Position numbers and translations under genes: made by a program. The notes under the pieces are model-generated. The model ran no database searches and was not told the origin of the DNA. It saw only the letters and a list, made by a program, of their open reading frames with translations. This document shows positions 6,387 through 44,437 of a stretch of DNA of 64,000 nucleotides, in pieces. This stretch comes from Prosopocoilus inquinatus (lineage: Eukaryota; Arthropoda; Insecta; Coleoptera; Lucanidae): assembly GCA_036172665.1 (NCBI GenBank), contig CM069871.1, positions 56,914,713-56,978,712 of the forward strand. Reading direction: 5' to 3'. Position 1 is the first letter of the stretch. Each line of letters begins with the position of its first letter.

Positions 6387-7614
6387 CGTGGGCTGCTGGA
6401 AAAGTTTCTGGAAACGGTATGAAAAAACGCATATGAAATTTGGTAAATGGTATCATTGTTTTTCGAAGTATTCGCCTTTGACGTCAATACACTTTTGCAT
6501 ACACTCGAACCAATATCTAAAGCACGTTTTCCACTCTAAAGATGGTTACCTCAGAAACCAGTGTCCGGAATGTTTCAACCGCTGCTTCAGCCGACGAAAA
6601 TCGCTCACCACGCATTTTATTTTTGATATTTGGGAACAAAAAGAAATCATTAGGTGATAAATCAGGTAAATATGGACAATGAGTCATTAATTCAACATTT
6701 TTGTTGGATAAGAAATCAACTGTTTGACGGGCTGAGTGAGAGCTGGCGTTGTCATGATGGAGAATAATTCGTCGATTTCGATTGTTTCTTCTTATTTGAT
6801 CGATGACTTCCGGCAAACAAATTGTAGTATACCAATCAGCATTCAAGATTTTTCGATCATCTAAAGCCACGGTTGCTACATGTCCAGTTAAACCAAAGAA
6901 ACAAGCAATCATTTGCTTCGCAGCACTGCGTGAACGGACAACTTTTGTTGGTTTTGGTTTATTTTGAAATACCCAAACGGTAGATTGTTGTTTACTTTCT
7001 GGCTCGTACGAATAGATCCACGTTTCGCCACCAGTAACGACGTTATAAACTAAATTTGAACGACCTCTATTGAATTTCTTGAGCATTTCTTCGCACCATT
7101 TGACACGACCCTGCTTTTGCGCTTCAGTTAAATTGTGTGGGATCCAACGACTGCAAAGCTTTCGTACGTTCAAATGATCATACAAAATCTGGTGTATTGC
7201 TTTCATGTCAATGCGTAGAGGTGCTTGAATCTCACGGTATGTCACATGTCGATTTCGCTCAAGCATTTCACGCACAGCATCTACATTAGTGGCAACAACA
7301 GATGTTGATGGACGACCTTCACGAAATTCAGTCACTGAGAGAGGTACGTACACGCTGGAATTCGGCAAAGCAATTATAAACACTGCTCTTTGATGGTGCT
7401 TCATCTCCAAAAGCCAAATGATGCCGATTGTTTCGGCGTTAGACCACATTTGACATCGTAAAAAATCATGGCATGAAAATTTTCACACAAGATTTCCATG
7501 TTTATGAATTATGAATTATAGTCGAAAAACGTCAAATTTTTCAAATATGACAGTTGATAAACTCATAACAATTCGAGACCTACTAGATTCCAGAAAATCT
7601 TCTGGCAGCCCACG
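6387..7614 (-). mobile_element. mariner transposon, 1.23 kb, inactivated
   Basis: The terminal inverted repeats are at 6387-6413 and about 7588-7614. They begin CGTGGGCTGC and match at about 85 percent over 27 bp. Each end is flanked by TA (6385-6386 and 7615-7616), the mariner target duplication. The length is normal for a mariner. The transposase inside runs right to left. Confidence 0.9.
6453..7449 (-). pseudogene. mariner transposase, catalytically dead
   Basis: Mariner transposases cut and join transposon ends with a D,D34D triad. Recognisable parts are SRWIPHNLTEAQKQGR (linker), TGGETWIYSYEPE, LHHDNASSHSARQT and YLPDLSPNDFFLF. Spacing between the second and third aspartates is 34, as expected. 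The first catalytic Asp (normally TGDETW) is Gly because of a single GAC-to-GGC change at codon 7027-7029. The N-terminal helix-turn-helix region is disrupted, and the C-terminal tail (CIDVKGEYFEKQ) lies in another frame after a shift near 6530. The element can no longer move itself, although its ends could still be used in trans. Confidence 0.9.
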
Positions 7615-16896: not shown

Positions 16897-17200
16897 TTTA
16901 ATGGGATTGTCCGAAGCAAAGAAATTAGCAGTAATTAATACACCACGCGGACTTTTTCAGTATCAGCGCCTTGCCTTCGAATAGCTAGTACTCTTGCTAT
17001 TTTTCAGCGTCTCATTTAGCGTCATTCACGGTTTACCAGACTGCGCCAGTTACTTGGACGAAATCATCATCACTGGATCTAGTAATTTAGAATATCTGCG
17101 AAATATAGATAAACTCTTGTCTTGTCTCGAAACTTGCGGCCTGAAATGCAATTTGTCGAAGAGCGAATTTTTCAAGCAAAAAGTCGAATATCTTGGCAAC
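16897..17200 (+). pseudogene. Gypsy reverse transcriptase, left fragment
   Basis: Frames give INTPRGLFQYQRLAF, then YLDEIIITGSSNLEYLRNID and NLSKSEFFKQKVEYLG, the RT palm and thumb of a Gypsy element of the K02A2.6-like type. The catalytic YLDD box reads YLDE, so the enzyme would be inactive. The frame is broken between the first and second blocks. A LINE interrupts it directly after VEYLG. Confidence 0.85.
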
Positions 17201-18395
17201 TTTTATGTCATTTTTCTCAGTTCGTATCTAATCATTTGGACAAAGCAGGACAGGTCAATGTCATTCATACCGACTTTGACAAATCATTTGACCGCGTACA
17301 CCATCAAATTCTCCTACAGAAGTTGTTATCAGTTGGTTTTGCTCATAAGTTAGTTGCATTAATAGAGTGCTATTTGATGAATAGGCCATCACTTGTTGTC
17401 ATCGTTCGTGTCCAATCGTCTCCTTATGTACCATCTTCGGGTGTACCTCAAGGCTCGAATCTCGGCCCTTTGTTGTTACTGATTTTCGTTGACGACTTAC
17501 CTCATGTAATCAACAGCGATATTTTATTGTTCGCTGACGATGCAAAAATATTTAAATCGATTAAGAATATTGGTGATTGTCACAGGTTTGAACTCTGGTG
17601 CAAACATAATAAATTAAAAATCAATGTGGATAAATGTATGGCAGTCTCGTATACTGGAAGAAAGAATGTGGTTTTATTCAGCTGTCAACTTATATCAACC
17701 ACAGTGGAAACGGTCACTTGTTTCAAGAACTTAAGTATGTCATTTGATTGTAAATTCACTTTTGAGTTACATATTAGGCAGATTGTTACCAGAAGCTTAA
17801 AAATTTTAGGCTTCATAATTCATAATTGTCGTCCTTGGAACTGTATTTCGGAATGGTGAGAACGTTCCTTGAGTACGCCTCCTTGGTATGGTTTCCTTTT
17901 TATAATTATCAGAAAAATCTGCTGGAAAATATTCAAAAAATATTTTTTAAATATATTATCTTTAAAGAGACAAGTGTATTCCCTTCATCTGTCAACTACA
18001 ATGAGTTATTAAATTCTTTTAATTATGACAGTCTAGAGACTCGGAGAATTGTTTCAGCATTAGTTAATGTACGTAAGGTACTTAATAAGGTGATTCAGGA
18101 AGAATTTTTATTGTCACAAATTAATTTTAGAGTACCAGTAAATACTAGATTAAACCATGCCCTTAAGTGTCCTAAAACACGCACCAACCTATTAAGACTT
18201 CACCAATTTATATTATGACATATCTTTATAACGAAATATCTGTTAAGGTCGACATCAACGTTTGTTCCGTCAAACAATTGAAAAATATAGCTACGGTATA
18301 TTTCAAATAATTTTTCAACTTTCAGGCAATAGTTTCTAGTGATGCTCCTTAATTGGCAATAGCTGTGGAGCGTAACAACTGCAATAAACAATAAA
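17201..18395 (+). pseudogene. 5'-truncated jockey-like LINE inside the Gypsy relic
   Basis: The reading frame at about 17201-17859 gives HLDKAGQVNVIHTDFDKSFD, SSGVPQGSNLGPLL and LLFADDAKIF: RT motifs A, B and C of the jockey/CR1 group (the usual YADD box is FADD). It continues in a second frame (17826-18218) with RTFLEYASLVWFPFYN and LENIQKIF. The frame change near 17850 shows decay. The 3' end carries AATAAAC repeats at about 18382-18396. Upstream RT and endonuclease are absent, typical of incomplete reverse transcription. Confidence 0.85.
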
Positions 18396-25660: not shown

Positions 25661-25760
25661 ACGAATCATCGAGTCTAAGCTGTGAGGCTAAAACTCAGTA
25701 AGCAAGAAGACTTGGGTGAACAGAAAGCTAAAGAAAAAATGAAAATCGAATGTATACTTC

Positions 25761-26141
25761 TGTCACGAAGGGTGCTTTTGTTAATTTAAACACTCTGTAT
25801 ATACATGTTAAATATTGCGGTACGGTGGGGGACACTTTGCTGGGTCGCCAATATCGGAATGAGCGCTCGATCGCGGCTTCGATCGGAGCGGGGGACTATT
25901 CGCTGGGCAAGGGCGACTCAGGAACGTGGGTCTTCCGGAGATTGGGTTGGTTGTGCCAAATAAACGTGATACTCAGTGAGTGGGCTTTTCCTGGACCCCT
26001 TTACCCTCATACCAGCTTCAGGCGACCCCAAGAAGGCCGGTAAGTCGATCCAATTTTTAAACGGCAAAACGGTTCCTTTACCACTGAGCTACCCCCTCAT
26101 TTTTCTGATAGCATCGCCGCTACCCCGGAGCGAGCGTGACA
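25761..26141 (+). repeat. 5' LTR of the errantivirus
   Basis: Starts TGTCACG and ends CGTGACA, a perfect 7-bp terminal inverted repeat. A TATA-like stretch (tgtatatacatg) is near 25796, and AATAAA is at 25959-25964. GC-richness rises sharply in the middle. An open frame of about 70 codons runs through the LTR but occurs because of composition. The minus strand at 26041-26091 has tRNA-like A-box and B-box motifs. Confidence 0.97.
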
Positions 26142-26145
26142 GTGG

Positions 26146-26155
26146 TGGAGGCGCC
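26146..26155 (+). other. candidate primer binding site
   Basis: TGGAGGCGCC begins 5 nt after the LTR end. TGG is the complement of the tRNA CCA tail. The rest resembles, from memory, the 3' end of insect tRNA-Thr (one G/A difference from the sequence I recall). The tRNA identity is tentative; another TGG begins 3 nt earlier. Confidence 0.45.
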
Positions 26156-26825
26156 TCTTTGCGCGATAATTTGAGTAGAAGTAACGTTTAACATTAATTG
26201 GGTCGGGACACGTAGTCAACTCGTTAGGGTGCGGTCACTTGAAATACCTCGTGTGTTTTAAGCAAAAGCGGTCACAGTTTATGATATAATTTTTTAAATA
26301 CAATTAGAGAATCCAGCCCGCTAATTATAAATACCTTTCCTTTTTCTTATCTAAATAATGCGTTGATCAAAAAACTGCCACTTTGTCATTTATAAGAGCT
26401 ATAGGTCGTTCAAACCAACAACGCAACGGTATGAATTGATAACCAAATATTAATTTTTAAATAAATACGGTGGCCAATATTAACAAAAATTATTAAATAA
26501 AAAGGAATACGTGTGCGGTAATTATTTAATTGCACGTACCGCGGAAGTTCACTGAACAGGTGTATTGTGACACGTTGCTGTGTCAGACGATTTTAAATAG
26601 GTAACAATTAAAATCGTATACGATAAAAATGTGCAAATGTAAGGCACTATAGTAAGGTGCTTATTGCGGTCTATAAAAAGCCTAATAATAAAAAGGGCCC
26701 AAAGAGACAAAATAAATATTAGCGTACACAAATATGCTTCTAATAAACATAATATTTAATTATCGGAACATTAATTAAGGCGGACGGAATAATCTCGGGT
26801 AAATTTAATAACGTTTGATACATAA
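26156..26825 (+). other. 5' leader of the errantivirus
   Basis: About 670 bp of AT-rich, non-coding sequence between the primer binding site and gag. It would hold the packaging signal and a splice donor for env RNA, neither of which I can identify. Confidence 0.6.
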
Positions 26826-28610
26826 ATGGCTGAAGGACCCAGAACAAGGCTAAGGAGCAAAGATGACGAAAAAGTCGAGAATTTAATAAAGGAAAAAATG
26901 AAGCCAGAAATTCACGTAACATTAGATAAACACGCTTTTTTCCCGCTAGCGAGGAGCACATTGACACCACGATCGCCGCCAGCAGGTCGAAAAAATTTAC
27001 AAATAACATTAGGCAGCGAAGAAGACTTAACAATTTTGGAAGATAAAAATGACAAAACAGAGACACTAGAACAAACACCCGCGATTACCACGCCTAACAG
27101 AGGTCAGCAGACTCAAGTCAGTCCGAACCCACACCAATTTCGGACATTGAAACAAGTCTTACATCAAGAAAACCAGCGGCAAATTCTAAATCCCGGTCCA
27201 ATACCCGATCCCCCCACTTGGCCAGAACGACTGAGCACAGAGACAACAATTAAACCGAAATCCTTAGCGGAATCGATAATGGAACAAAGAGAAAAAATAC
27301 TGGAAACGCGCGTTGCGCCATCAGCAGATGATACGTTCTTACGAAAAGGAGCAATTCCGAAACAAAATAATATCGTACAGAGGAAACAATTGGAACCTAA
27401 TAACGGAAAATTGAAGCAAAACCCGGAAATCCACGAATTTAATTCGAAGGAACCTAATTGGACGAGTAGAAATAAATCAATTAGTATGTTTTATAACACA
27501 CGTAAATCAGTGGCGCCAAAATTTTCGAAACCACCAGCTTTTAATCCGCAGGAAGATGATCCTATGACTTTCTTGAAAAAATATAAAGTTGTAGCCAAAA
27601 TGAACGGTTGGGACGAATTGGAACAGCTGGGATATTTGGAAAATTCTTTGGAAGGTAGTGCACTTTCCTGGTTTGAAAATTTGATAAGAAATAATCCAGA
27701 GGCCGATTGGGATTGGACAATAAAAAAGTTCAAAGATAAATTTTTAGGTCCCAATTTCGAATTTAAATTGCAAGAAAAATTAATTATTCGGAAACAACGA
27801 ACAAACGAAAGCTTAACGGACTTTTTTTATTCATTTATAGAAATCTGTAACGATTATAATCCGAAAATGCCCGAAAGAGAAATTCTACAACGCTTGATGG
27901 CGGGATTATTACCCTACTATAGACATATGGTATGCATAAAGTGTCCAACAAGTTTAAAAGATTTAGAACATTTTATGGACACCATAGAAGAGACAGAAAA
28001 GGAAGGGAAGACAATTCTGCATAAGGACGTGGGGAAAAATCCCGAAGAAGAGAACCACGGCTATGACCTACGAAGATCGGACATAAGACAAGATCAGTCG
28101 GAAACAATGGGCATAATAAATAAATTAATCGACAAATTGACTGTTGACCGAAAAGAAGACGCCTTTAGAGATCGGAAGGGGGATTCTGTTTACTACAATG
28201 CCAGAAGAAAACTCGAGCATAAAAAATTTGGAGAGGATGACAAAAGGAATAATTTTCATTTGACAGGAATCAAAAACCAAAAGCATTATCAACGAACTTC
28301 AAACATCTTTAATTGCCAAATTTGTGGTTACGCTGGTCATATGGCCAGAAATTGTAGAAAATTGACTCCAAGAAGAGGGTATAACAATGACAACAATAAA
28401 GAAGCGAGATCAGTGAACGTCCCGACATGTCAATGGTGTAATACAAGAGGACACACAGCGTCAACATGTAGAAAATTAATAGCAGGAAGGCAAATTCCCA
28501 ATAATCCACTGAACAGAGAGGGGCAATGTGTAATTAAGAAAGGATACGATTATGGCAGAAAGATGAATAATAATTTAAATGGTACAGGACAGAGCACGAA
28601 AAGGCCCTGA
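26826..28610 (+). CDS. gag: Gag polyprotein
   Basis: The structural protein that forms the particle shell and binds genomic RNA. It has 594 codons; the ATG is in a good context (A at -3). Residues 1-230 are polar and low in recognisable motifs. Residues about 235-390 match the Gypsy capsid-like gag domain (SALSWFENLIRN, WTIKKFKDKFLG, LTDFFYSFIEICNDY, LQRLMAGLLPYYR). Two CX2CX4HX4C zinc knuckles follow: C497-C500-H505-C510 and C535-C538-H543-C548, the nucleocapsid. The stop codon TGA (28608-28610) lies inside the frameshift pseudoknot, and pol overlaps the last 37 nt. Errantivirus Gags often lack zinc knuckles, so two clear ones are worth noting. Confidence 0.95.
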   Translation: MAEGPRTRLRSKDDEKVENLIKEKMKPEIHVTLDKHAFFPLARSTLTPRSPPAGRKNLQITLGSEEDLTILEDKNDKTETLEQTPAITTPNRGQQTQVSPNPHQFRTLKQVLHQENQRQILNPGPIPDPPTWPERLSTETTIKPKSLAESIMEQREKILETRVAPSADDTFLRKGAIPKQNNIVQRKQLEPNNGKLKQNPEIHEFNSKEPNWTSRNKSISMFYNTRKSVAPKFSKPPAFNPQEDDPMTFLKKYKVVAKMNGWDELEQLGYLENSLEGSALSWFENLIRNNPEADWDWTIKKFKDKFLGPNFEFKLQEKLIIRKQRTNESLTDFFYSFIEICNDYNPKMPEREILQRLMAGLLPYYRHMVCIKCPTSLKDLEHFMDTIEETEKEGKTILHKDVGKNPEEENHGYDLRRSDIRQDQSETMGIINKLIDKLTVDRKEDAFRDRKGDSVYYNARRKLEHKKFGEDDKRNNFHLTGIKNQKHYQRTSNIFNCQICGYAGHMARNCRKLTPRRGYNNDNNKEARSVNVPTCQWCNTRGHTASTCRKLIAGRQIPNNPLNREGQCVIKKGYDYGRKMNNNLNGTGQSTKRP

Positions 28611-28643
28611 ACTCTGTCCGGAATTATTTCCAAAAAGGGGCCT
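28574..28643 (+). promoter_or_regulatory. -1 ribosomal frameshift signal with predicted pseudoknot
   Basis: Slippery heptamer T TTA AAT at 28574-28580 is in the gag frame (codons 584-585). A 6-nt spacer leads to a perfect 8-bp stem, GGACAGAG (28587-28594) with CTCTGTCC (28612-28619). Loop bases AGGCCC (28602-28607) can pair with GGGCCT (28638-28643), giving an H-type pseudoknot. The pol frame has a stop (TAA, 28571-28573) immediately before the heptamer and is open from 28574, so Gag-Pol fusion can occur only at or just after the slip site. This makes the heptamer functionally convincing. Confidence 0.9.
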
Positions 28644-31600
28644 CAAGTGATAGTGGTTCGTGTAGTGAAACAAGGAAAAATAATAATATTAAGTGTAATT
28701 TAATAACAATTCCAACAAATGACGCCAATATATTGACAACAACAGGTAGTCTTAATGGAAGAGATGTTAATATTATTGTGGACACGGGAGCAGCATTTAA
28801 CGTTATTACTAGACGTTTTGCAACCGATATATTACCATTGGAAAATTCGCCCGTTCTGAATACGATTAATAATAAAAAAGTTGTCCCTTTAGGAATGTCA
28901 AAAGTAACGGTTTCACTGAGGGGCAAAATTTTTTTGCTACAGGCACTAGTTGTGGAGAACCTGACAGCACCACTGATTTTAGGATGCCCTTTTCTTAAGG
29001 ATTATGATGCCGAAATAAATTTTTCTTCCAAGGAAATTAAGTTGAATAACCTAGAAACGAGCGTTGAAACTAATTTAGAAATACGGCAACAAAATATTGA
29101 TAGTATTAAAAGTCAAAATTCCCGAAGATTAGGACAGGGTTGGCTAAAAATACCTAAATGGACAAGTCAAAGGGTCTCGTATGAGAATTTTAAAAATCAG
29201 GACACAACGAAATTTTCCACTGAAATCAAGTACGTGAAGACAGATTTATTTAATTTACCAAAGTCATTTAGTTTAGCTCATTGCGTATCAGCCGATCTAA
29301 GAATGTCTAAAGGTATTGCTAAGTTATTTAAAGCTAAATTTGATAACATCGAGCAACTTAAAAACCAGAATCCAAATGTGGGAAATGTGGTTTACTTAAA
29401 ATTAAAAGAGAGATTTGTTTTTTACTTAATAACAAAAAGACATTCGCAGGATAAACCAACTTTACAAAATATTTTTAATTCCCTCTTATCGTTAAAACAG
29501 CTGATGGTACAGAATAAACTCGAAAATTTAGGGATGCCAAAAATAGCTTGCGGAATGGATAAGCAAAAATGGAAAACTATAGAAAAAATGATACGATACA
29601 TCTTTCAGGGAACAGACATTAACATCAACATATGTGAACTGCCAGAACAAGATTATCAAAAATCAGCAACTACAGCTCATAAAAATAAAACAGCAGTGTC
29701 TTGGAACGAACTACCAGGAGAGGATATCGTAGATGAAATTGTACAAGATCAAATAATTAAAGTCAATATAGCGGAAGATGCAATGATTGAAGGAGGAGAA
29801 TCTAGAAGCTGTCAAATTAAATTTTCAGATAATGCAAACTTTGAAAAACCATTACTGTTTTGTACGTTTCATGCAAGAGGACAATTTCTTCATAAAAATA
29901 AATTGGAGATAGCAGATGATTTTCGAGATTTTGGAAATAATAAAATTAACATCTCTAATTATGATAAAAACAGGAAACTAATCAAGAAGGATACGGCATT
30001 GGGCTACATTGTGGTGGATAACAAAAATGAAATTGGAAAATTATTAGCAGAACAAAATAAGCTTTTAAATTTAAATGTAGTGATGGAAGAAAAGTCGTCA
30101 AAAGTTTATAACATAAACAATCATCTGCAAGACGAAGAAAAGAAGAAATTAGAAAATTTATTACAGAAAAATTCAGACATTATGGCATGGACAAACCTAC
30201 TTCTCGGAAAAACAGATCGGGCAGAACACACGATCGATATTGGACAAAACAGCCCCGTCAAATCACGACCATACAGGGTAAGTATGAAGGAGCGGGATAT
30301 CATTAAACAACAAATAGAAGAGATGTTGGAAGCCGGGATTATACGTCCTTCAGACAGCGAATTCGCTTCGCCCGTCGTGTTAGTAAAAAAACCGGATGGT
30401 ACATTTAGATTCTGTGTTGATTACCGGAAACTGAATGCCATCACCACGAAGTCATCGTACCCCCTACCGCTGATAGATGATATACTAAATTTTTTAGGAG
30501 GAAATAAATATTTTTCGACACTAGACTTAAACAGCGGTTATTGGCAATGTCCAGTTAAAGAAGAAGATCGGCATAAAACGGCATTTACAACAAACGATGG
30601 GCTGTATGAGTTTAACCGCTTGAGCTTCGGACTGTGTAATGCACCAAGTACCTTCCAAAGGCTGACTGACTCAATATTTAAGGACTTAAAATGGAAGGAA
30701 GTGGCAATCTATTTAGACGATATCATCGTGGTAAGCAATACCATGGAGGAACACTTAGAACGTTTACAAAGAGTCTTCAATTGCATAAAAGGAGCAGGTC
30801 TTACTTTAAAACCTTCAAAGTGCTATTTTGGAATGCAGGAACTTAGAGTGTTAGGATTCAAGATTTCAACTAAAGGTATATTACCAGACGAGACAAAGAT
30901 CCAAGCAGTAAGAAATTTCCCTACACCAAGAAAAATAAAAGAAGTTCAAAGTTTCTTAGGATTATGTAATTTTTTCAGACGGTTTATTAAAAATTTTTCA
31001 ATTATCGCCGGCCCGTTGTATAACATTATTGGGGCAAATTCAAAATTTGAATGGGGTCAAAACCAGAAAAAAGCTTTCGAAGCTCTAAAAGAAAAACTAA
31101 CCAGTGCTCCCATCTTAGGACATTACAATCCTACGGCAGAAACCGAGCTACGAGTAGATGCGAGTGGAAACGGAATCGGAGCAGTTTTATTGCAAAAAGA
31201 CGTGGTGTCACAAAAACTTCACCCTATTTCGTATATCTCAAGAACTCTTACCAAATACGAAAAAAGCTACCCCATAACAGAATTAGAATGCCTAGCGGCA
31301 GTATGGTCGGTGGAATACTTTAGATCTTACTTGTGGGGATTGGACAGCTTTAACATAATTACAGATCACCACGCGTTGTGTTGGCTACAGACGTTAAAAA
31401 CTCCCGGAGGTCGTCTACTGCGCTGGTCGTTGAAACTGATGGAATATTCATACAAAGTTTTCCATAAAAAAGGAACATCAAACAAGGATGCAGATGCACT
31501 CTCGAGGTACCCTTGTACTCTAGGAACCACAGAAGATGAGAAGGAAGCACAAAATGTTCCAACATTCATTGCAAGTGCAACAGATTTGGAAAAGTGGCAA

Positions 31601-33868
31601 AGGAATGATTCACGTTTACAAGAAATAAAAAAGGCAGTAGAAAATCCTGAATATGGAGGACCAGCAATCCAAAGAGCAGCAAAAAATTATGAACTGGTTA
31701 ATGAGGTTTTGTATAAGAAGGACCCGTCATCCATAACTGACGCAAAACTATTAGTTATCCCGCAAAATTTAAAAGAAGAGATTATGACAAATTTCCATCG
31801 GGATCCCATAAGCGGCCACTTAGGATTGACTAAAACTCTAGATAAGATCAGAAAAAGATATTTCTGGGAAGGAATGAAACAAGATATCACAAAATTTATT
31901 AGGGGTTGCCCAGAATGCCAAATTCGGAAGGGACCAACAAATCGGAAACCTGCAGGATTACTGAAACCCATTACAACGGAAACGCCTTTCGCCATGGTAG
32001 GAATTGATCTTTTAGGCCCATTTCCACGAAGTTCAGCCGGAGCAAAATTCATAGTTGTAGCAACGGATTATGCTACACGTTGGGCTGAAGCTAAGGCCCT
32101 GCCAAGTGGAAAAGCTGAACCCGTAGCAAAATTTATAGTAGAGCAGCTCATTTGCAGACACGGATCACCAAAAAGAATTTTAAGTGATCGCGGAGCAGTG
32201 TTTCTATCCAATTTAGTTACAGAAATTTTAAAATTATTAGGAAGTGATAGTTTATTTACAACTGCGTACAAACCCTCAACGAATGGACTAACGGAGCGAT
32301 TAAATAAAACAATAGCCGACATGATTAGTAAATATACGACTAATTCCCAAAAGGATTGGGATGTTTTCCTGCCACATTGCATATTTGCTTACAATACATC
32401 ACGGCAAGAGGCCACTAAGCATAGTCCATTTTCGTTGGTATATGGTCGCGAACCAGTTCTTCCAACCGATGCGGAACTTAGCCAACCAATGTCTACAGAA
32501 TTTACACTCAGAAGTCAACAAGTGATACGTGAGACACGGGAAATCGCCAAAAGAAACATCGAAAGGAAACAGGAAAACGACAAAGAAATCTATAATAAAA
32601 AGCACAGGTATGTCATCTTTAATGTGGGCGACAAAGTGAAATTAAGAAATTTTGTCAGAAAAGTAGGAAAATGTGAAAAGTTGTTACCAAAATACTTCGG
32701 CCCGTTCGTCATAATTGAAAAAAGGAATGATTTGAACTATGTAATTTCAACAGATTCCGGAAAAAATAGCAAACAGGATGTGGTACATGTTTCAAGATTA
32801 GCACCTTTTTATGAACAATGGAAAGAAGATGGTCCCCAAGATACTTTTAAGAGAGCCAAGTGTTTCTACAAGAGCCGAAAACATGACAACCCAAAAGAAA
32901 ATATGGAGAACATGGGCTTTAAACCAATTCAAGTAAATGAAATAAAAGGTTTAAAAAACACGGGAAATACGTGTTACCTAAATTCGGTTATAAGCTGTCT
33001 CGCGCATATAGAAGAAGTAACACACTTTTGTAGGCAATATTCACCGAGAAATAATAAAGACAACGTAAATTTTTTAGAAAATTTTGTACAAACAATTAAT
33101 GATTTAACCAATAATTCCAAGAAGAAAATAATATCAGTATCAAGATTAAAAAATAAACTAGAAGCGGTAAATCCCTTATTTAAAGGGAAAGGGCAACAGG
33201 ACGCCCACGAGTGTCTGTTTTATATTCTACAGATCCTCCACGAAGAAGCAAAACAAGTTGAAAATCGAAACAGTGAAAAATCATTTATATCAGACATTTT
33301 TGCGGGCGCATACGATTTAATGGCGGAATGTCTAGAATGTGGAAATCAGTCCATCACCAAAAGTCCAGGATGGGGCATTTCACTTTCCATAGATAAACAT
33401 AGAGACACCCGCTTGGAGACTTGTTTGGATAATTACTTCGGAGAAGAGATTCTTTCGGAAGATAATCGGCCTATTTGTTGGTCTTGCCGTAAAAGAACCA
33501 ACACTAGAAAATATACAAAAATTGTGGAATTGCCGGAGTACCTGGTGCTACATTTCAACAGTTACTATTGGTCGGGTCAAGAGACTGAGAAATTACATAA
33601 AAGTGTAAAATTTCCATTAACTGATTTAAATGTAGGAACATTCTATAAAAATGTTGAAAGTAAAAATACAAGGTATAATTTACAGGGGGCAATTGAACAC
33701 GTAGGAAGTGCGAATGAAGGACATTACATAAGTTACGTTACAGGCAAGAATTCACAAGGAATTGACACCTGGGTGAAATGTAATGATGATGTAGTAACTA
33801 AAATAGACTCAAAAGAACTTTTAGAAAAAAATATGTACATACTTTTTTATAAGCGAGAAAACCATTAG
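28574..33868 (+). CDS. pol: Pol: protease-macro-RT-RNase H-integrase-USP polyprotein
   Basis: Read by -1 frameshifting from gag; residues here are numbered from the TTG at 28733. Protease: VDTGA at 16-20 and LILGCPFL at 81-88. Macrodomain: about 163-305. A beta-rich Gypsy linker follows to about 430. RT: KPDGTFRFCVDYRKLN at 553-568 and YLDD at 660-663. RNase H: RVDASGNGIGAVL at 807-819, TDHHALCWL at 877-885 and ADALSR at 920-925. Integrase: HX6H (H1022, H1029), CX2C (C1059, C1062) and D1092, D1152, E1188 (D,D35E), then a GPF motif at 1323-1325. USP: 1404-1711. All catalytic residues I checked are present and there is no internal stop. Processing of the macro and USP parts from Pol is not visible in the sequence. 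Confidence 0.96.
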   Translation, partial: FKWYRTEHEKALNSVRNYFQKGASSDSGSCSETRKNNNIKCNLITIPTNDANILTTTGSLNGRDVNIIVDTGAAFNVITRRFATDILPLENSPVLNTINNKKVVPLGMSKVTVSLRGKIFLLQALVVENLTAPLILGCPFLKDYDAEINFSSKEIKLNNLETSVETNLEIRQQNIDSIKSQNSRRLGQGWLKIPKWTSQRVSYENFKNQDTTKFSTEIKYVKTDLFNLPKSFSLAHCVSADLRMSKGIAKLFKAKFDNIEQLKNQNPNVGNVVYLKLKERFVFYLITKRHSQDKPTLQNIFNSLLSLKQLMVQNKLENLGMPKIACGMDKQKWKTIEKMIRYIFQGTDININICELPEQDYQKSATTAHKNKTAVSWNELPGEDIVDEIVQDQIIKVNIAEDAMIEGGESRSCQIKFSDNANFEKPLLFCTFHARGQFLHKNKLEIADDFRDFGNNKINISNYDKNRKLIKKDTALGYIVVDNKNEIGKLLAEQNKLLNLNVVMEEKSSKVYNINNHLQDEEKKKLENLLQKNSDIMAWTNLLLGKTDRAEHTIDIGQNSPVKSRPYRVSMKERDIIKQQIEEMLEAGIIRPSDSEFASPVVLVKKPDGTFRFCVDYRKLNAITTKSSYPLPLIDDILNFLGGNKYFSTLDLNSGYWQCPVKEEDRHKTAFTTNDGLYEFNRLSFGLCNAPSTFQRLTDSIFKDLKWKEVAIYLDDIIVVSNTMEEHLERLQRVFNCIKGAGLTLKPSKCYFGMQELRVLGFKISTKGILPDETKIQAVRNFPTPRKIKEVQSFLGLCNFFRRFIKNFSIIAGPLYNIIGANSKFEWGQNQKKAFEALKEKLTSAPILGHYNPTAETELRVDASGNGIGAVLLQKDVVSQKLHPISYISRTLTKYEKSYPITELECLAAVWSVEYFRSYLWGLDSFNIITDHHALCWLQTLKTPGGRLLRWSLKLMEYSYKVFHKKGTSNKDADALSRYPCTLGTTEDEKEAQNVPTFIASATDLEKWQRNDSRLQEIKKAVENPEYGGPAIQRAAKNYELVNEVLYKKDPSSITDAKLLVIPQNLKEEIMTNFHRDPISGHLGLTKTLDKIRKRYFWEGMKQDITKFIRGCPECQIRKGPTNRKPAGLLKPITTETPFAMVGIDLLGPFPRSSAGAKFIVVATDYATRWAEAKALPSGKAEPVAKFIVEQLICRHGSPKRILSDRGAVFLSNLVTEILKLLGSDSLFTTAYKPSTNGLTERLNKTIADMISKYTTNSQKDWDVFLPHCIFAYNTSRQEATKHSPFSLVYGREPVLPTDAELSQPMSTEFTLRSQQVIRETREIAKRNIERKQENDKEIYNKKHRYVIFNVGDKVKLRNFVRKVGKCEKLLPKYFGPFVIIEKRNDLNYVISTDSGKNSKQDVVHVSRLAPFYEQWKEDGPQDTFKRAKCFYKSRKHDNPKENMENMGFKPIQVNEIKGLKNTGNTCYLNSVISCLAHIEEVTHFCRQYSPRNNKDNVNFLENFVQTINDLTNNSKKKIISVSRLKNKLEAVNPLFKGKGQQDAHECLFYILQILHEEAKQVENRNSEKSFISDIFAGAYDLMAECLECGNQSITKSPGWGISLSIDKHRDTRLETCLDNYFGEEILSEDNRPICWSCRKRTNTRKYTKIVELPEYLVLHFNSYYWSGQETEKLHKSVKFPLTDLNVGTFYKNVESKNTRYNLQGAIEHVGSANEGHYISYVTGKNSQGIDTWVKCNDDVVTKIDSKELLEKNMYILFYKRENH
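29219..29647 (+). other. TARG1/OARD1-like macrodomain within Pol
   Basis: Pol residues about 163-305. Blocks KTDLFNLPKSFSLAHCVSAD, MSKGIAKLFKAKF, YLITKRHSQDKPT and GMPKIACGMDKQKW line up along the whole length with the human ADP-ribose hydrolase TARG1 (OARD1). The residues known to be catalytic in TARG1, Lys84 (in the ITK block) and Asp125 (in the GCGLD block), correspond to K235 and D276 here and are conserved. The family removes ADP-ribose esters from proteins and deacylates O-acetyl-ADP-ribose. The domain sits between protease and the usual linker before RT and is in frame with both, so it is an acquired insert rather than a separate gene. Activity is inferred. Confidence 0.93.
32942..33865 (+). 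other. ubiquitin-specific protease (USP) domain at the C-terminus of Pol
   Basis: Pol residues about 1404-1711, following the integrase C-terminal domain. Cys box GLKNTGNTCYLNSVISCL with nucleophile C1414; GQQDAHECLFYILQIL at 1487-1502; zinc ribbon C1533-X2-C1536 and C1582-X2-C1585; fingers/palm blocks PEYLVLHFNSYYW; His box EHVGSANEGHYISYVTG with H1664; WVKCNDDVV with D1685; closing MYILFYKR. About 308 residues, near the minimum for a USP catalytic core, so nothing appears missing. USPs cleave ubiquitin from substrates. No host flanking domains are attached. Activity and substrate are inferred only. Confidence 0.96.
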
Positions 33869-34076
33869 TCAACACGTGTTGGTCAAATTTACATAAATAT
33901 ACAATACGTTAAAGTAGACATCAAATATATTATTATTTTACTTATATTTCTTTATGTTTTAGGTGTAATTTAGAAGACATCAATTGGGGCCCCAAACACG
34001 AAATAATCTATTATTGTTCTAATATTAAAAATATAGCTTATTTTTATTTTTAGTCATAAAGGTAAACAAACAAAAC
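33869..34076 (+). other. pol-env spacer with candidate env splice acceptor
   Basis: 208 bp between the pol stop and the env ATG. A T-rich run ending in TAG (about 34040-34053) lies 24 nt before the ATG and would fit a 3' splice site for a spliced env RNA, the usual way errantiviruses express env. Confidence 0.5.
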
Positions 34077-35999
34077 ATGTGGCCACAAAATTTAGCAGCA
34101 TGTATTTTATATCTGCTAATAACGGAAAATGCGAGAGGCGAATTGGATCAAAAATACGAGATAAAATCCATGGATGGGACGTCAGGAATGGTATACGAGG
34201 ATCTAGGTAAATTCTATATAACGGATTCCTTCTGGAATTTGTTAACTTTCATAGACTTAGATAAATTTGAAGAAAAATTTGTGCAGATCATTAATCTTTT
34301 TAAAGATACTGAAAAAATATGTAATGATAAAACATTAAAAGCGTCTGATTTATGCGGAAATTACTTAAATATAATAAATGCAACAATTAATCGCGTAAAA
34401 TGGGAAAAAGATATGATTCCAAATTTATTAGGGCATAATTTGGTAAAACGAGGATATTTTGACGCAATTGGAAAAATTTCTAAGACTTTATTCGGTACTC
34501 TAACGACTGATGATGCAGAAAGATTTGAAAAGATGATAAATGAAGTTGAAGCTGACCAGGACACTTTGTCTAAAGTTATGAAAAATCAAACAATAATAGT
34601 AATGTCAACATTAGATTCACTAAATAATACATTAGGCCATATTGAGCATAATGAAAAACTGATTTCCCAGAGTTACAATTCGATAAAAAATATTTTAGGT
34701 AAAACTGCAACGGAAGTGGATTTCTTGTATAGAATAGACAGGCATTTGAAAGATCATATATCGATACTAACGACAATTATTGAGCAGTATAAATTAGAGG
34801 TAATAAATTTAATAAATATTATTGTTTCGGCAAAGCAGGGAATATTTCATCCATTATTTATCTCTCCAACAACCCTATTAGAAAATTTGAAGTCCATAAT
34901 CACATTTATACCGGCAGGGGTTAAATTCCCTACAAATATTGATAACCCAAATGCAATAGAAGCCTTATTTAAAATTAGTAAATTAAGTATATTTTTCAAA
35001 AATTCAAAGTTATATGGAGTAGTCAGAATACCGTTAGTCCAAATTAAGCCGTTTACATTCTACAAATTAATTTCTATCCCTGTGAGATGGCATAAGAATA
35101 TATTTGTAGTAATTAATCTTTCATACGCATACCTTGCAATAAATGAAATAAGATCAGAATTCGTCCTGTTGGACAAAGATGAAATGTTAACAATTATTTC
35201 TCTACAAGATCAGGTGTATATTTCACTTAAAGAAAAAACTTTAATTACTACAAACAAAAATATTTGTGAGATACAATTATTGTCATATAAAAAATCAATT
35301 CCAGATATTTGCGAGCGGCACGTGTTAACTATCAATCACATTTATTTTATGGAGTCTGTATTAGCAAATTCGTGGATATTTGTAACCCCAAATGCAGAAT
35401 CGTTAACATTAACTTGCACCGGTCAAGATGGCAACAACACAATTAAATATATAAATTTAAACGGCACCGGTAAACTTTATTTGGCAACAGGATGTAAAGC
35501 ATTCTCTGAAAATGTAATACTGAAGGCAATACAAACGGAAGAATTCGAATTATTTCAACATATACCTTCTTTAAACATGAAAGATTTTAATGAGAAAGGG
35601 GATAATTTGACGTCACCATTAATCGAAGATCTAAAAATATTAGATTTAGAAAAATTAGAAAAAGTAATGAACATTAATGAATCTCTGATAAATAAACGCC
35701 AAAAGCTAGAATCAGTTCTAAACGATATTAATAATATCCAAATAAAACATAAACACAAACTAAAAGAAAATTATGAATCGATTATATTATACTGTGTAAC
35801 AATAACTATTATTATAAGTATAGGCACATATTGTTTTAAAAAAAGATTAGGAACGTGTAATCGAAAAAACCAGAAAAGGAGAGAAAATATCCTTATGAAG
35901 GAGTATGAGGAAGGAACCTTCGTATTACCTGACGGAAGGAAGTGTACGGTAAACCTACGGGAGGCGACTTCACGTGAGGAATTGGATCGTCTGAACTGA
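34077..35999 (+). CDS. env: Env, F-type fusion glycoprotein
   Basis: 640 codons, intact. An N-terminal hydrophobic segment (about residues 3-17) would be a signal peptide. A dibasic site at K124-R125 precedes GYFDAIGKISKTLFGTL, which matches the cleavage and fusion-peptide region of insect errantivirus and baculovirus F proteins. Several N-X-S/T sites follow. A transmembrane segment spans about 567-587 (SIILYCVTITIIISIGTY), then a basic cytoplasmic tail of about 53 residues. The expected furin Arg four residues before the cut is missing (LVKR rather than RxKR), so cleavage may be weak. The protein is assigned from family resemblance; fusogenic function is not shown. Confidence 0.9.
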   Translation: MWPQNLAACILYLLITENARGELDQKYEIKSMDGTSGMVYEDLGKFYITDSFWNLLTFIDLDKFEEKFVQIINLFKDTEKICNDKTLKASDLCGNYLNIINATINRVKWEKDMIPNLLGHNLVKRGYFDAIGKISKTLFGTLTTDDAERFEKMINEVEADQDTLSKVMKNQTIIVMSTLDSLNNTLGHIEHNEKLISQSYNSIKNILGKTATEVDFLYRIDRHLKDHISILTTIIEQYKLEVINLINIIVSAKQGIFHPLFISPTTLLENLKSIITFIPAGVKFPTNIDNPNAIEALFKISKLSIFFKNSKLYGVVRIPLVQIKPFTFYKLISIPVRWHKNIFVVINLSYAYLAINEIRSEFVLLDKDEMLTIISLQDQVYISLKEKTLITTNKNICEIQLLSYKKSIPDICERHVLTINHIYFMESVLANSWIFVTPNAESLTLTCTGQDGNNTIKYINLNGTGKLYLATGCKAFSENVILKAIQTEEFELFQHIPSLNMKDFNEKGDNLTSPLIEDLKILDLEKLEKVMNINESLINKRQKLESVLNDINNIQIKHKHKLKENYESIILYCVTITIIISIGTYCFKKRLGTCNRKNQKRRENILMKEYEEGTFVLPDGRKCTVNLREATSREELDRLN

Positions 36000-36853
36000 T
36001 CAGCAGACATCCAACCCTCGACGGAAGTAGTGTCCCGAGGTTAACTACTAATAAGAAAATTACAATTTCTAATTACATTTTCCGTTAGCTTAAGAAAATT
36101 TTAGCACTTAGTAGTAAACATGTACTATATAAGTATTACTCATTTTTTTTCCTTGACCTACGCAAGGAAATGGCCAATCGTTGCGTCGGTACTAGATATT
36201 TTTGTTATTACCATTATAATTATTATATTAAAGTTCTTGTTAATTCTACGATTGTAATACATGTATGTCATTCAAGCATAATACCAAATTTAACAGAAAA
36301 TATTTTTATAACTTTATATTGAATTAGAGATTAGTCAAATATTGTAATTCATGGGGCACAACCTACAAACCTAACGTATATTGTAAATGTAAAATTCTGA
36401 TGCTGCCTTTTCTTTTATGGACGCTGCCGAAGAACCAAGGATATTATCGAGTTAATCAACGGACAAAGGAAAGAAAATATGGAACCAAAAAATCCTAGTG
36501 GAGGGAAAAGTAGTTGAGGCTCCTAAACGATAAACCGAAGGTCAACACCAGAGCAAAATGAAGATGATGCCTGAATTAAGTAGGGCATCACACAAGTACA
36601 TGTACTACGAATTCAAGACCGAGTTTACCACCTTAAATCACTTCGACCTATAAGCAAACGAGGAGTCCCTCCAACATCTTGAATTTGAACATCATTCGGA
36701 CCATGGAATAAATAGAAAATCAGCAGTTGATCCATTAAGAATACTGTGTAGCTTTGTTAACATATTTAAATTATAATTCAATTAGCTATTAGGAAAAGTA
36801 ATATCTTCGTGACGGCTATTGGTAATGTAAATATGCATGGAAGCATATTCTCC
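36000..36853 (+). other. 3' untranslated region of the errantivirus
   Basis: About 850 bp between env and the polypurine tract. No open frame of note and no recognised repeat. Its length is unusual for the family and it may hold RNA export or packaging signals. Confidence 0.5.
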
Positions 36854-36866
36854 GGCGGGGGGGAAA
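36854..36866 (+). other. polypurine tract
   Basis: A purine run (ggcgggggggaaa, one C) directly abuts the 3' LTR. It would prime plus-strand DNA synthesis during reverse transcription. Confidence 0.9.
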
Positions 36867-37247
36867 TGTCACGAAGGGTGCTTTTGTTAATTTAAACACT
36901 CTGTATATACATGTTAAATATTGCGGTACGGTGGGGGACACTTTGCTGGGTCGCCAATATCGGAATGAGCGCTCGATCGCGGCTTCGATCGGAGCGGGGG
37001 ACTATTCGCTGGGCAAGGGCGACTCAGGAACGTGGGTCTTCCGGAGATTGGGTTGGTTGTGCCAAATAAACGTGATACTCAGTGAGTGGGCTTTTCCTGG
37101 ACCCCTTTACCCTCATACCAGCTTCAGGCGACCCCAAGAAGGCCGGTAAGTCGATCCAATTTTTAAACGGCAAAACGGTTCCTTTACCACTGAGCTACCC
37201 CCTCATTTTTCTGATAGCATCGCCGCTACCCCGGAGCGAGCGTGACA
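36867..37247 (+). repeat. 3' LTR of the errantivirus
   Basis: By base-by-base reading it is identical to the 5' LTR over 381 bp. AATAAA at 37065-37070 would end the genomic transcript. It is followed by the CTTC duplication. Confidence 0.97.
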
Positions 37248-37251
37248 CTTC

Positions 37252-41678: not shown

Positions 41679-44437
41679 ATGGATAGCAAGTATGTAAAAT
41701 TTGCTCACCTTAATGTGAGATCGATATTAAACAATTTTCATGAAATTAAAGATATTATAATCTTGAATAATTATAATATCGTCTTTTTAATTGAAACTTG
41801 GTTGAATAGTAATATCTGAATCAATTAATATAGCCGATTCTGTTTGTCAGATATGATCGTGTTGGTATTGGTGCTTACCTTAAAAAATATTTAAAATTTG
41901 AATTAATTAAAACTGAGATCACAAATTTCATTGAACATATGTGGATTAAAGTCACTTTTGGTTATGTTTCTGTGTTAACAGGTGTTGTGTATAGGCCGCC
42001 TAATTATAATTTTAATCATTTTTTTCCGTATTTTGAGAAAATCTTACTAATGTTGTCTATGTCACACGAATGCATTTTTATTCTTGGTGATTTTAACATT
42101 AATTTATTGTTACCCTGTTATAATACTACAGCAAAATTTCTTGATATTCTGGAATCTTTTAATTTGGAACAAATTATAACTGTGCCCACTCGCATTACAA
42201 ATAACACCAGCACACTTATTGATCATGTAATAACAAATAAGCAAAATGTTATTTTGGACTCTGGAATTCTTGATGTACATACTATTTCTGTTCACTCTTT
42301 AATCTGGTGTATGATTTCTATAAACAAACCTTGTAAACCCGAGCTTATGCCATTCTCTTATCGTGATTTTACAAATATAAACTTATTAAATTTTAATAAT
42401 GATTTAGAATTCATTCCTTGGCACATAATCTATGAATTTAACAACATTAATGATAAAGTCGACTTCCTAAACAGTAATCTATTAAAGCTGTTTAACCCTC
42501 ATATGCCACTTAGAACTTTTATATGCACTAAAAAACATTCTCCGTGGTTGACGGACAATTTGAAATTCATGATGAACATCAGGGACAAAGCATTAACACA
42601 GTTCAAATCTTCTGGTCTTTTAACACATTGGACACACTACAAATCATTACGAAATTTAGTTACCAAAACCGTCAAATCCGAGAAAAAAGCTTATCTAGAA
42701 CACAAAATAAAAAACACTAAACCGAGTAATATTTGGAAACAATTAAAACAATTTGGTGTTTATGACAACAAAAGAATTGATCTCCCTGAGGATCTTAATG
42801 ATCCGAATCAAATTAATGAATTTTAATAGATTCTCTGAAGAATTTTAATAAACAGTTGCCAGACACCGTTTCTTCATATTTAAATGTTTCTCCGGTTTCA
42901 TTAGAAAATTTTATTTTTTCTCCGGTTTCGGAAGAAGTTATTATACAATATCTTCTAAAGTTCCGGAGTAAAGCCTATGGTGCAGATGATTTAAGCATAG
43001 ATTTAATATACTTTTTTTGCCCACTTCTTCTACCTATTTTTACTCATCTTATTAACTTTTGCATTGTAAACTGTGTGTTTCCTGATTGTTGGAAAGAAGC
43101 ACGTGTTCTACCAATGGCTAAAATCAGCGACCCTAAATCTTTTAAGGACATACTATTAGCATCTTACCAGTTTTATCTAAGATCTTAGAGAAAATCATAG
43201 ATCGGCAGGTAAGAGATTATTTATCATTAAATAATATTATTCCAGAAATGCAATCTGGTTTTTTCGACCGGGTTATAGCTGTTCTACTGCTCTTTCTCAT
43301 GTAGTTGATGACATAGTTAATGAAGTTGATGATAACAGAATGGTTCTTCTAGTTTTACTGGATTATACAAAAGCCTTTGACCTCATAAATCACAAAGTTT
43401 TGCTTGCAATTTTGAAGTTTATTGGTTTAAGTCAATGCGCCTTAAATTTTTTTGATAATTATCTTGAACGAAGAACTCAGAGAGTGTTTTATAATTGTAA
43501 ATTGTCTAACTCGTTATCGGTTCACTGTGATGTACCGCAGGGATCAACTTTAGGTCCATTGCTGAAGCACTGCAAGTATCACCTTTAAGCTGATGATACT
43601 CAATTGTATTATTCATTTTATGCAAAAGACATAGATATTGCTTGTACTCTGGTTAATGAAGATATAAAAAAATTATTAAGAACTTCAAATGATCACGGCT
43701 TGTATCTTAATGCCGCAAAAACTAATGTAATGCTCTTTCGGAAGAAAAAGCTTCGACTGCAATTTAAGGAAGCTGTAAAACTAGAAATGGACAATACCGC
43801 ATTATCATTGACTGACTGTTGCAGAAATCTGGGTTTGTATATTGATACCGATCTTAAATTTTCAGCACATGTTACTAAATTAATTCAAAGAGCTTACGTT
43901 AACTTAAAACTAATTTATATCAATCGCTCTTATCTCTCTTTTCATGTTAAACGTATGCTGTGTGATTCTTTAGTATTGTCCCACTTTAATTTTTGCGATG
44001 TTGTGTACGGATCATGTCTTGACTTTTCAGATACTTCAAGAATTCAGGTAGTCCAAAATAGTTGTATGAGATTAATATGCGGTATTAGACGTAGGCAGCA
44101 TATATCACATAAGCTTCAGGAGCTTCAGTGGCTTAATATGAAAAACAGGCGCTTTTTACATTACACTCAATTTTTTCATAAAACCTTAGTTTATAAATGC
44201 CCTCCATACTTGTACAACAAAATTCGTTTTCGTACAGATGTCCACAACATCAACATTAGAAACAGAGGACTTTTAACTATTCCACGTCATAAGTCTGAAT
44301 TCTATAAACGTTGTTTCAGTTACCAAATAACCTCTGTTTTAAATAATTTACCATATGGCTTCCTAGATTTGTCTTCTTTTTTGTTACGAAACAAATTGAA
44401 TCTAATACTATTTAATTCTCAGGTTTCAAATCTCTGA
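41679..44437 (+). pseudogene. LINE-A ORF2: endonuclease-reverse transcriptase
   Basis: Starts at ATG 41679 with KFAHLNVRSILNNFHEIKD, the N-terminus of an apurinic-type endonuclease. The endonuclease continues in a second frame (41939-42826) with VVYRPPNYNF, ILGDFNINL and ITNNTSTLIDHVIT. RT follows: FRSKAYGADDLSID near 42960, LLDYTKAFDLINHK near 43355, DVPQGSTLGPLL near 43540. After GPLL the usual I-x-I-N-D block is missing (small deletion), and the Tyr of the YADD box is replaced by a TAA (43586-43588), followed by ADDTQLYYSF in frame. The rest (to 44437) is open. Several frame changes make it non-functional. Confidence 0.9.

What the first reader, a model, noticed from the sequence alone, without database searches (positions are those of the whole stretch)
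32942..33865. A complete ubiquitin-specific protease fused to the C-terminus of the integrase
Seen: Cys box with C1414, QQD motif, CX2C/CX2C zinc ribbon, His box with H1664 and D1685, and the closing YILFYKR block, all in the same frame as integrase with no stop. Known: these residues define active USP deubiquitinases. Inferred: the element can remove ubiquitin from its own or host proteins, for example to protect Gag or integrase from turnover or to block ubiquitin-dependent immune signalling. Gypsy elements often carry chromodomains at this position; a USP there appears unusual.
Basis: partly seen in the sequence, partly recalled or inferred. Interest (0 to 1): 0.95.

Follow-up and report, generated by a model that had tools for sequence, protein, structure and literature searches.

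The report
Retrovirus-like element carrying two erasers
A recently inserted, envelope-bearing retrovirus-like element has built into its replication polyprotein an enzyme that looks able to remove ubiquitin and a second one that looks able to remove ADP-ribose, two tags that cells use to mark and control proteins, a pairing best known from coronaviruses.

Summary
Window 32945-33865 encodes a complete ubiquitin-specific protease (Pfam UCH 2e-57, profile 2-254 of 254; predicted fold matches USP2-ubiquitin) in frame at the integrase C-terminus of a Ty3/Gypsy element with identical 381-bp LTRs, a 4-bp target duplication and a Baculo_F-type env. It is not an assembly error: 23 genomic copies are 97-100% identical over the USP, 17 of them in an unbroken 1764-codon frame. 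Older families (USP 31-49% identical) keep the catalytic Cys and His; 11 of 19 diverged loci show the whole order PR-macrodomain-RT-RNaseH-IN-USP. A sister group has macrodomain and env, but pol stops right after integrase; trees fit one USP gain after the macrodomain. TARG1-like macrodomains sit at three different Pol positions in this genome. Best reading: captured erasers that travel with Pol and strip ubiquitin and ADP-ribose from the element's own complexes; a joint ADP-ribosyl-ubiquitin counter-defence is the boldest. Activity is untested. No precedent was found in the open library searched; the most relevant paper was not held.

The parts
25757..25760 (.). target-site duplication CTTC, left copy
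25761..26141 (+). 5' LTR, 381 bp, TGTCACG...CGTGACA
   Evidence: identical over 381 bp to the 3' LTR
26826..28610 (+). gag ORF: Retrotrans_gag capsid; CCHC knuckle below its cut-off
   Evidence: PF03732 5e-10
28733..29080 (+). aspartic protease, start of the pol ORF as listed
   Evidence: PF13975 1.2e-8
29207..29656 (+). TARG1/OARD1-like macrodomain; K235 (nt 29435) and D276 (nt 29558) match human K84 and D125
   Evidence: PDB 4j5r E 8.7e-38; fold match TARG1 TMt 0.95; residues
30284..30985 (+). reverse transcriptase
   Evidence: PF00078 3.9e-35
31040..31500 (+). RNase H
   Evidence: PF17917 3.3e-34
31721..32803 (+). integrase up to its SH3/p58-type C-terminal module
   Evidence: PF17921 4.8e-22, PF24626, PF22938 over their cut-offs; core PF00665 1e-6, slightly below its cut-off
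32804..32944 (+). 47-residue linker between IN and USP
   Evidence: the two sister elements read stop 8 residues past the end of IN
32945..33865 (+). ubiquitin-specific protease domain; C1414, H1664, N1684/D1685, two CxxC pairs
   Evidence: PF00443 2e-57; USP2 1.8e-43; fold 6dgf E 1.1e-29
34077..35999 (+). env ORF, Baculo_F fusion protein
   Evidence: PF12259 1.1e-31
36854..36866 (+). polypurine-rich tract abutting the 3' LTR
   Evidence: sequence
36867..37247 (+). 3' LTR, 381 bp
37248..37251 (.). target-site duplication CTTC, right copy

Best explanation
Identity (near certain): a young, Env-bearing Ty3/Gypsy element whose Pol carries two captured cellular eraser domains, a TARG1-type ADP-ribosyl hydrolase between protease and RT and a USP2-like deubiquitinase as a C-terminal extension of integrase. 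Mechanism (inferred): both are made as part of Pol, so they travel with RT and IN in the particle and pre-integration complex. There they act mainly in cis: the USP removes ubiquitin from integrase, Gag/Pol or bound host proteins, and the macrodomain removes ADP-ribose from proteins or nucleic acid. This keeps the complex from being tagged for degradation or from signalling before integration. Shown here: domains, frame, residues, selection, history. Not shown: activity, cleavage between IN and USP, substrate, packaging.
For: USP complete, with USP2-like fold. In 13 aligned element USPs from four families Cys and His are kept in 13 of 13, the third position is N in 11 and S in 2, the first CxxC in 13 of 13, the second in 12 of 13. 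Between families USP dN is 0.38-0.66 against dS of 1.41-2.07 or beyond correction. Against two broken but closer copies with dS 0.30-0.42, omega of four USP pieces is 0.28, 0.38, 0.47 and 0.55; of the macrodomain 0.29 and of RT 0.11. By position, USP follows IN in 26 of 26 copies with IN at or above 98% and in 13 of 15 at 73-84%. Env present in the four older-family loci whose downstream 1.5 kb was held, L028-L031. The macrodomain Lys/Asp pair is kept in 10 of 10 sequences aligned, human TARG1 included; four degenerate public ones were not in that set. A USP-less sister group with macrodomain and env, and RT and IN trees, fit one gain of USP.
Against: No activity, expression or particle data. 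The fast divergence of USP is matched by the protease (dN 0.31-0.65), so it need not mean a host conflict. Within the youngest family USP pN/pS is 0.71 over few changes (IN 0.40), compatible with weak constraint. A sister group exists without USP, so it is not essential. 13 of 48 USP-followed IN matches have no macrodomain match upstream in the capped list. Nothing shows that the substrate is the element's own protein.
Confidence: 0.5

Rival explanations
1. Counter-immunity in trans: the two domains dampen host signalling that uses ubiquitin and ADP-ribose, including the mixed ADP-ribosyl-ubiquitin tag, as coronavirus nsp3 does with its macrodomain and papain-like protease.
For: Both enzyme types sit in one Pol in 11 of 19 diverged loci read, from at least three families, and in the window; 35 of 48 USP-followed IN matches have a macrodomain match upstream. 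In vitro TARG1 is among the hydrolases that remove the whole Ub-ADPr adduct from ssRNA and ssDNA, and USP2 removes only the ubiquitin (PMC10810221, passages). ADPr-Ub arises on PARPs after interferon in human cells (PMC12000418, passages). The host genome has one Deltex-domain match and five PARP-domain matches.
Against: Human and in vitro data, not this host; few PARP matches in this host, two of the five next to each other; 17 copies in the nearest sister group have a macrodomain and no USP; no evidence of action away from the particle.
Confidence: 0.25
2. Chromatin role: at the position where chromoviruses carry a chromodomain, the USP binds or deubiquitylates histones and guides or eases integration.
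For: Position at the IN C-terminus; USPs acting on ubiquitylated nucleosomes are known (SAGA Ubp8 is among the fold matches).
Against: No target-site preference was tested; the best fold matches are USP2, USP8 and USP21, with Ubp8 further down; the Cys and His are kept, which mere tethering would not need.
Confidence: 0.15
3. Passenger or decaying domain: captured by chance and not used.
For: Within-family pN/pS of 0.71, rapid divergence, sisters without it, several broken copies.
Against: Retained with catalytic residues through families whose silent sites are saturated; 17 of 23 young copies in an unbroken frame.
Confidence: 0.08
4. Artefact: misassembly, or read-through into a host USP gene.
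For: None found.
Against: 23 near-identical full-length loci spread over nine contigs, between matching LTRs in the window, and diverged families with the same fusion.
Confidence: 0.01

Closest known systems
Envelope-bearing Ty3/Gypsy elements (errantivirus-like insect endogenous retroviruses)
   Same: LTR, gag, pol, env order; Baculo_F-type env; PR-RT-RNaseH-IN order; 4-bp target duplication
   Different: two extra enzymes in Pol; a ubiquitin protease after integrase. Term searches within PMC13172572 and PMC12992720 found no 'ubiquitin' or 'macrodomain'
Human USP2/USP8/USP21-type ubiquitin-specific proteases
   Same: complete UCH domain, Cys-His-Asn arrangement, zinc CxxC pairs, fold
   Different: about 30% identity; part of a retroelement Pol; no activity shown
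TARG1 (OARD1, C6orf130) ADP-ribosyl hydrolase; next DarG
   Same: macrodomain fold, 45% identity, K84/D125 equivalents
   Different: embedded in Pol between protease and RT; activity untested
Coronavirus nsp3 (macrodomain Mac1 plus USP-fold papain-like protease)
   Same: an ADP-ribose eraser and a deubiquitinase in one viral polyprotein (nsp3 layout recalled; enzyme activities seen in passages of PMC10810221)
   Different: unrelated capture, other lineages of both folds, other polyprotein
Orchid Gypsy elements with an m6A demethylase (PMC9289625)
   Same: a Ty3/Gypsy lineage that captured a working eraser enzyme (abstract and passages)
   Different: separate ORF, RNA demethylation, plants
Insect retrotransposons with viral RNA helicase domains (PMC6338049)
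   Same: accessory enzyme fused to retrotransposon polyproteins (first of four parts of the text)
   Different: helicase of viral origin; no 'ubiquitin', 'USP' or 'ADP-ribose' in the main text

Membership tests
Ubiquitin-specific protease (Pfam UCH, MEROPS C19) | full-length UCH domain | tested here: met
   2e-57, 2-254 of 254
Ubiquitin-specific protease (Pfam UCH, MEROPS C19) | catalytic Cys and His with Asn/Asp/Ser as third residue | tested here: met
   C1414, H1664, N1684; Cys and His in 13 of 13 aligned
Ubiquitin-specific protease (Pfam UCH, MEROPS C19) | palm-thumb-fingers fold as in USP-ubiquitin complexes | tested here: met
   AF2 model pLDDT 77.3, pTM 0.80; 6dgf TM 0.79/0.80
Ubiquitin-specific protease (Pfam UCH, MEROPS C19) | cleaves ubiquitin | not testable with these tools
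   needs an enzyme assay
TARG1/OARD1 macrodomain hydrolase | macrodomain closer to TARG1 than to other macrodomains | tested here: met
   TARG1 8.7e-38, next other macrodomain 0.087; fold ranks 1-8 all TARG1
TARG1/OARD1 macrodomain hydrolase | catalytic Lys84 and Asp125 | tested here: met
   K235 and D276; K84A is inactive in PMC8501950 (passages); the role of D125 is recalled
TARG1/OARD1 macrodomain hydrolase | hydrolyses ADP-ribose from Glu/Asp or nucleic acid | not testable with these tools
   needs an enzyme assay
Env-bearing Ty3/Gypsy element | LTRs with TG..CA ends, short target duplication, gag-pol-env with PR-RT-RH-IN order | tested here: met
Errantivirus (genus) in the strict sense | placement with Drosophila gypsy-type members on an RT tree | not tested
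   no reference errantiviruses were in the trees
Chromovirus (IN chromodomain) | chromodomain at IN C-terminus | tested here: not met
   no chromodomain match up to E 1 in 31601-32900 or 32870-33865

The most novel reading that the evidence does not exclude
The element carries a two-enzyme kit against the mixed ADP-ribosyl-ubiquitin tag: the macrodomain takes off the whole adduct and the USP takes off ubiquitin, from the element's cDNA, RNA or integration complex. That would be a retroelement counterpart of coronavirus nsp3 and would imply that hosts tag retroelement intermediates with ADP-ribose and ubiquitin.
Probability: 0.22. Interest if true: 0.95.

Novelty: new variant of a known kind. 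Interest (0 to 1): 0.84.

Why it matters
Retroelements with captured accessory enzymes are known, but in the searches made here I found none described with a ubiquitin protease or a TARG1-type macrodomain in Pol. The pairing suggests that ubiquitin and ADP-ribose are used against retroelements in this host. It gives natural comparisons (macrodomain only, macrodomain plus USP) within one genome, and it turns the open question of what ADP-ribosylation does to retroelements into something that can be tested with isolated domains.

Tried and rejected
Assembly error or host read-through: rejected.

USP in other public pols: a search with the 332-aa domain found 7 USP proteins of 214-538 aa, and by the tool's length rule it could not have returned pols; the pol-length search with USP words found none at E 1e-3 among 989 candidates; of the best 120 listed of 361 pol hits none has a USP (phmmer; HMM, weakest non-hits E 0.13-0.45). 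These searches need shared 5-residue words and depend on gene models, so absence elsewhere is not proven. Viral contigs gave no USP or IN relative and one weak macrodomain match, L001, not followed. Genome contigs was not scanned.

Donor USP: the tree of element USPs, six or seven sampled host USP loci and the proteins separates window, A, B, C and D from the rest (support 96, whole-domain alignment) but leaves family H unresolved, and the host locus L053, which I read as USP2-like, is only weakly nearest. Copy L058, an element piece of family H, was left out of that tree.

Arms-race reading of USP divergence: weakened, because the protease diverges as fast.

Literature (open PMC library only): searches listed no paper that reports a retroelement with a USP or TARG1-type macrodomain, judged by titles, abstract starts and term counts (one search was on ADPr-Ub). 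The paper on envelope-carrying retrotransposons across metazoans (eLife.108449) is not held, so a mention there cannot be excluded.
Full report
What is there. The window lies in an unnamed 650-Mb genome in 173 contigs (G000:C3:56914713-56978712). An 11,487-bp element runs from 25761 to 37247: two LTRs of 381 bp with no difference, ends TGTCACG...CGTGACA, flanked by CTTC on both sides, a polypurine-rich tract next to the 3' LTR. It encodes gag (26826-28610), a long pol frame (listed from 28733, 1711 codons; open frame 1764 codons, in the -1 frame relative to gag and overlapping its end, worked out from coordinates) and env (34077-35999). Pfam finds Retrotrans_gag, aspartic protease, RVT_1, RNase H, integrase modules and Baculo_F (1.1e-31). 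Identical LTRs mean a recent insertion (inference).

The USP. Window:32870-33865 matches UCH over its whole profile (2e-57), USP2 in PDB (1.8e-43), and its AlphaFold2 model (pLDDT 77.3, pTM 0.80, eight sequences) matches USP2-ubiquitin complexes best (6dgf, E 1.1e-29, TM 0.79/0.80).

A second enzyme. Between protease and RT lies a macrodomain that Pfam only grazes (PF01661 0.0014, 19.0 bits, cut-off 22) but that is plainly TARG1-type: PDB TARG1 8.7e-38, the next other macrodomain 0.087; its AlphaFold2 model (pLDDT 80.4, pTM 0.78, three sequences) matches TARG1 with E 1.3e-17, TM 0.95 by target length, 45% identity, and then DarG. Human K84 and D125 correspond to K235 and D276. K84A abolishes TARG1 action in PMC8501950 (passages); the role of D125 is recalled.

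Copies and families. USP query on the own genome: 85 matches, host USP exons among them. 23 are full-length at 97-100%; 17 of these 23, the window's included, lie in the unbroken 1764-codon frame; one has a stop inside the USP and five lie in shorter frames. Older families: A/B (L032, L033; USP 49 and 46% identical), C-F (L034-L037; 41-43%), H-M (L039-L044; 31-32% by BLAST), and broken closer copies O (L045; pieces 68-73%) and P (L046; pieces 74-77%, one 45%). Of 19 diverged loci (L032-L050) 11 show all of PR, macrodomain, RT, RNaseH, IN and USP in that order; 8 lack one or more of the upstream domains within the 5.3 kb fetched. Several are broken by stops or frameshifts. In 13 aligned USPs (window plus 12, from four families, two with a stop) the Cys and His are kept in 13 of 13, the third position is N in 11 and S in 2, the first CxxC in 13 of 13, the second in 12 of 13.

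Selection. Between families dS is 1.41-2.07 or beyond correction for USP, with dN 0.38-0.66; macrodomain dN 0.23-0.31, protease 0.31-0.65, IN 0.10-0.27, RT 0.06-0.15. Against the broken copy L045 (dS about 0.4 for USP, RT and macrodomain) omega is 0.47 and 0.38 for two USP pieces, 0.29 macrodomain, 0.11 RT; against the broken copy L046 two USP pieces give 0.28 and 0.55. That these copies are dead raises omega. Among 24 open young copies (16 distinct USP sequences) pN/pS is 0.71; IN 0.40 (24 copies, 12 distinct), on few changes. So USP is under purifying selection over the long run, but evolves fast; the protease is as fast.

History. 113 of 116 IN matches (4419 first-look candidates, 113 scored) were crossed by position with the USP matches and about the first 99 of 151 macrodomain matches. 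Followed by USP: 26 of 26 at 98-100% identity, 13 of 15 at 73-84%, 9 of 40 at 63-72%, 0 of 12 at 47-58%, 0 of 20 at 36-37%. Of the 48 followed by USP, 35 have a macrodomain match upstream. Of the 31 without USP at 63-72%, 17 have a macrodomain upstream. Two of these 17 were read: L064 and L065 have macrodomain (50%), RT (75-76%), IN (68-70%) and env (46-48%), and their pol frame ends 8 residues past the end of IN, where the window's linker and USP begin; USP queries gave nothing better than E 0.14-0.21 there, at other places or on the other strand. Trees of RT and IN separate the USP families from L064/L065 and the rest with support 72 (RT) and 98 (IN). In an earlier FastTree run without L064/L065 the USP families form a clade with support 1.000 in both. 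The simplest history is macrodomain first, then one gain of USP; the RT support is modest. The 120 listed outside pols (of 361) have no USP; 2 have a clear macrodomain (P0036, P0040), 4 a degenerate one (P0035, P0027, P0054, P0043), P0020 a marginal match.

The macrodomain is common and mobile. The macrodomain query on the own genome gave 1310 first-look candidates, of which 150 were scored, and 151 matches; the weakest listed has E 9.2e-30. Only those read are shown to lie in retroelements. Four further loci were read: L060 and L061 have it between PR and RT, L062 between RNase H and IN, L063 after IN. L060, L062 and L063 were tested against PDB and hit TARG1 at 3.3e-39, 1.2e-35 and 1.6e-29; all four keep the Lys/Asp pair. 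IN identity of the window to these is 31-35%, macrodomain identity 38-44%, whereas among window, L032 and L035 IN is 82-84% and macrodomain 57-65%. A domain that evolves faster than IN inside the clade yet is more alike than IN across lineages, and sits at three places, points to repeated capture or transfer between elements (inference; the macrodomain tree itself is poorly resolved). Mosaic pol genes are visible: L060 and L061 share an identical RNase H (dS 0) but have macrodomain dS 1.18, and L045 against the window has RT dS 0.38 but IN dS 2.31.

How it most likely works. Shown: both domains are intact, in frame, conserved at their catalytic residues and encoded in Pol. Inferred: Pol products enter particles, so both enzymes accompany RT and IN; the USP, attached to IN, strips ubiquitin from the complex, the macrodomain strips ADP-ribose. 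In vitro, TARG1 is among the hydrolases that remove the entire Ub-ADPr adduct from ssRNA and ssDNA while USP2 removes only ubiquitin (PMC10810221, passages). ADPr-Ub occurs on PARPs after interferon in human cells (PMC12000418, passages). The host has one Deltex-domain match and five PARP-domain matches, so the writers of such a tag may exist. Coronavirus nsp3, with Mac1 and a USP-fold protease, is the nearest functional parallel (its layout recalled).

Novelty. Accessory capture by retroelements has precedents: RNA helicases (PMC6338049, first of four parts and term search) and a working m6A demethylase (PMC9289625, abstract and passages). I found no report of a USP or TARG1-type macrodomain in a retroelement Pol in the listings (open PMC library only); the paper most likely to mention it, eLife.108449, was not held. 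I rate it a new variant of a known kind.

Noticed in passing
G000:C5 47390395, 47401877, 47413359; junction in L059: Three window-family copies lie head to tail 11,482 bp apart; the one junction read is LTR directly against LTR with a few end bases missing, like the joint of a two-LTR circle.
   Followed up: partly
L062:2893-4995: A macrodomain-bearing Ty3/Gypsy element is followed by an ORF matching the Monjiviricetes fusion glycoprotein (PF24664, 2.5e-168), a different envelope type from the window's Baculo_F.
   Followed up: no
L063:575-1303: After integrase this element has a TARG1-like macrodomain followed by a CCCH zinc finger resembling that of CPSF4.
   Followed up: no
P0027 residues 1140-1236; P0035, P0054, P0043: Degenerate macrodomains in public pol proteins, in P0027 located after integrase, where the window has its USP.
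   Followed up: partly
L045; L060 and L061: Mosaic pol genes: neighbouring domains of one element have very different silent divergence from the same relative.
   Followed up: partly
G000:C9 24799509 (+) and 24802709 (-): Two window-family macrodomain pieces on opposite strands 3 kb apart, an inverted pair.
   Followed up: no
window 6520-7449 (-), 17122-17856 (+), 41939-42823 (+): Remnants of other mobile elements around the insertion: DDE transposase (below cut-off), reverse transcriptase and endonuclease pieces.
   Followed up: no
window 28574-28610: The pol frame overlaps the end of gag in the -1 frame, so a -1 frameshift is likely; I saw no classical slippery heptamer by eye.
   Followed up: no
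L001 5001-5219: A viral contig encodes a weak match (30% identity over 73 residues) to the macrodomain.
   Followed up: no
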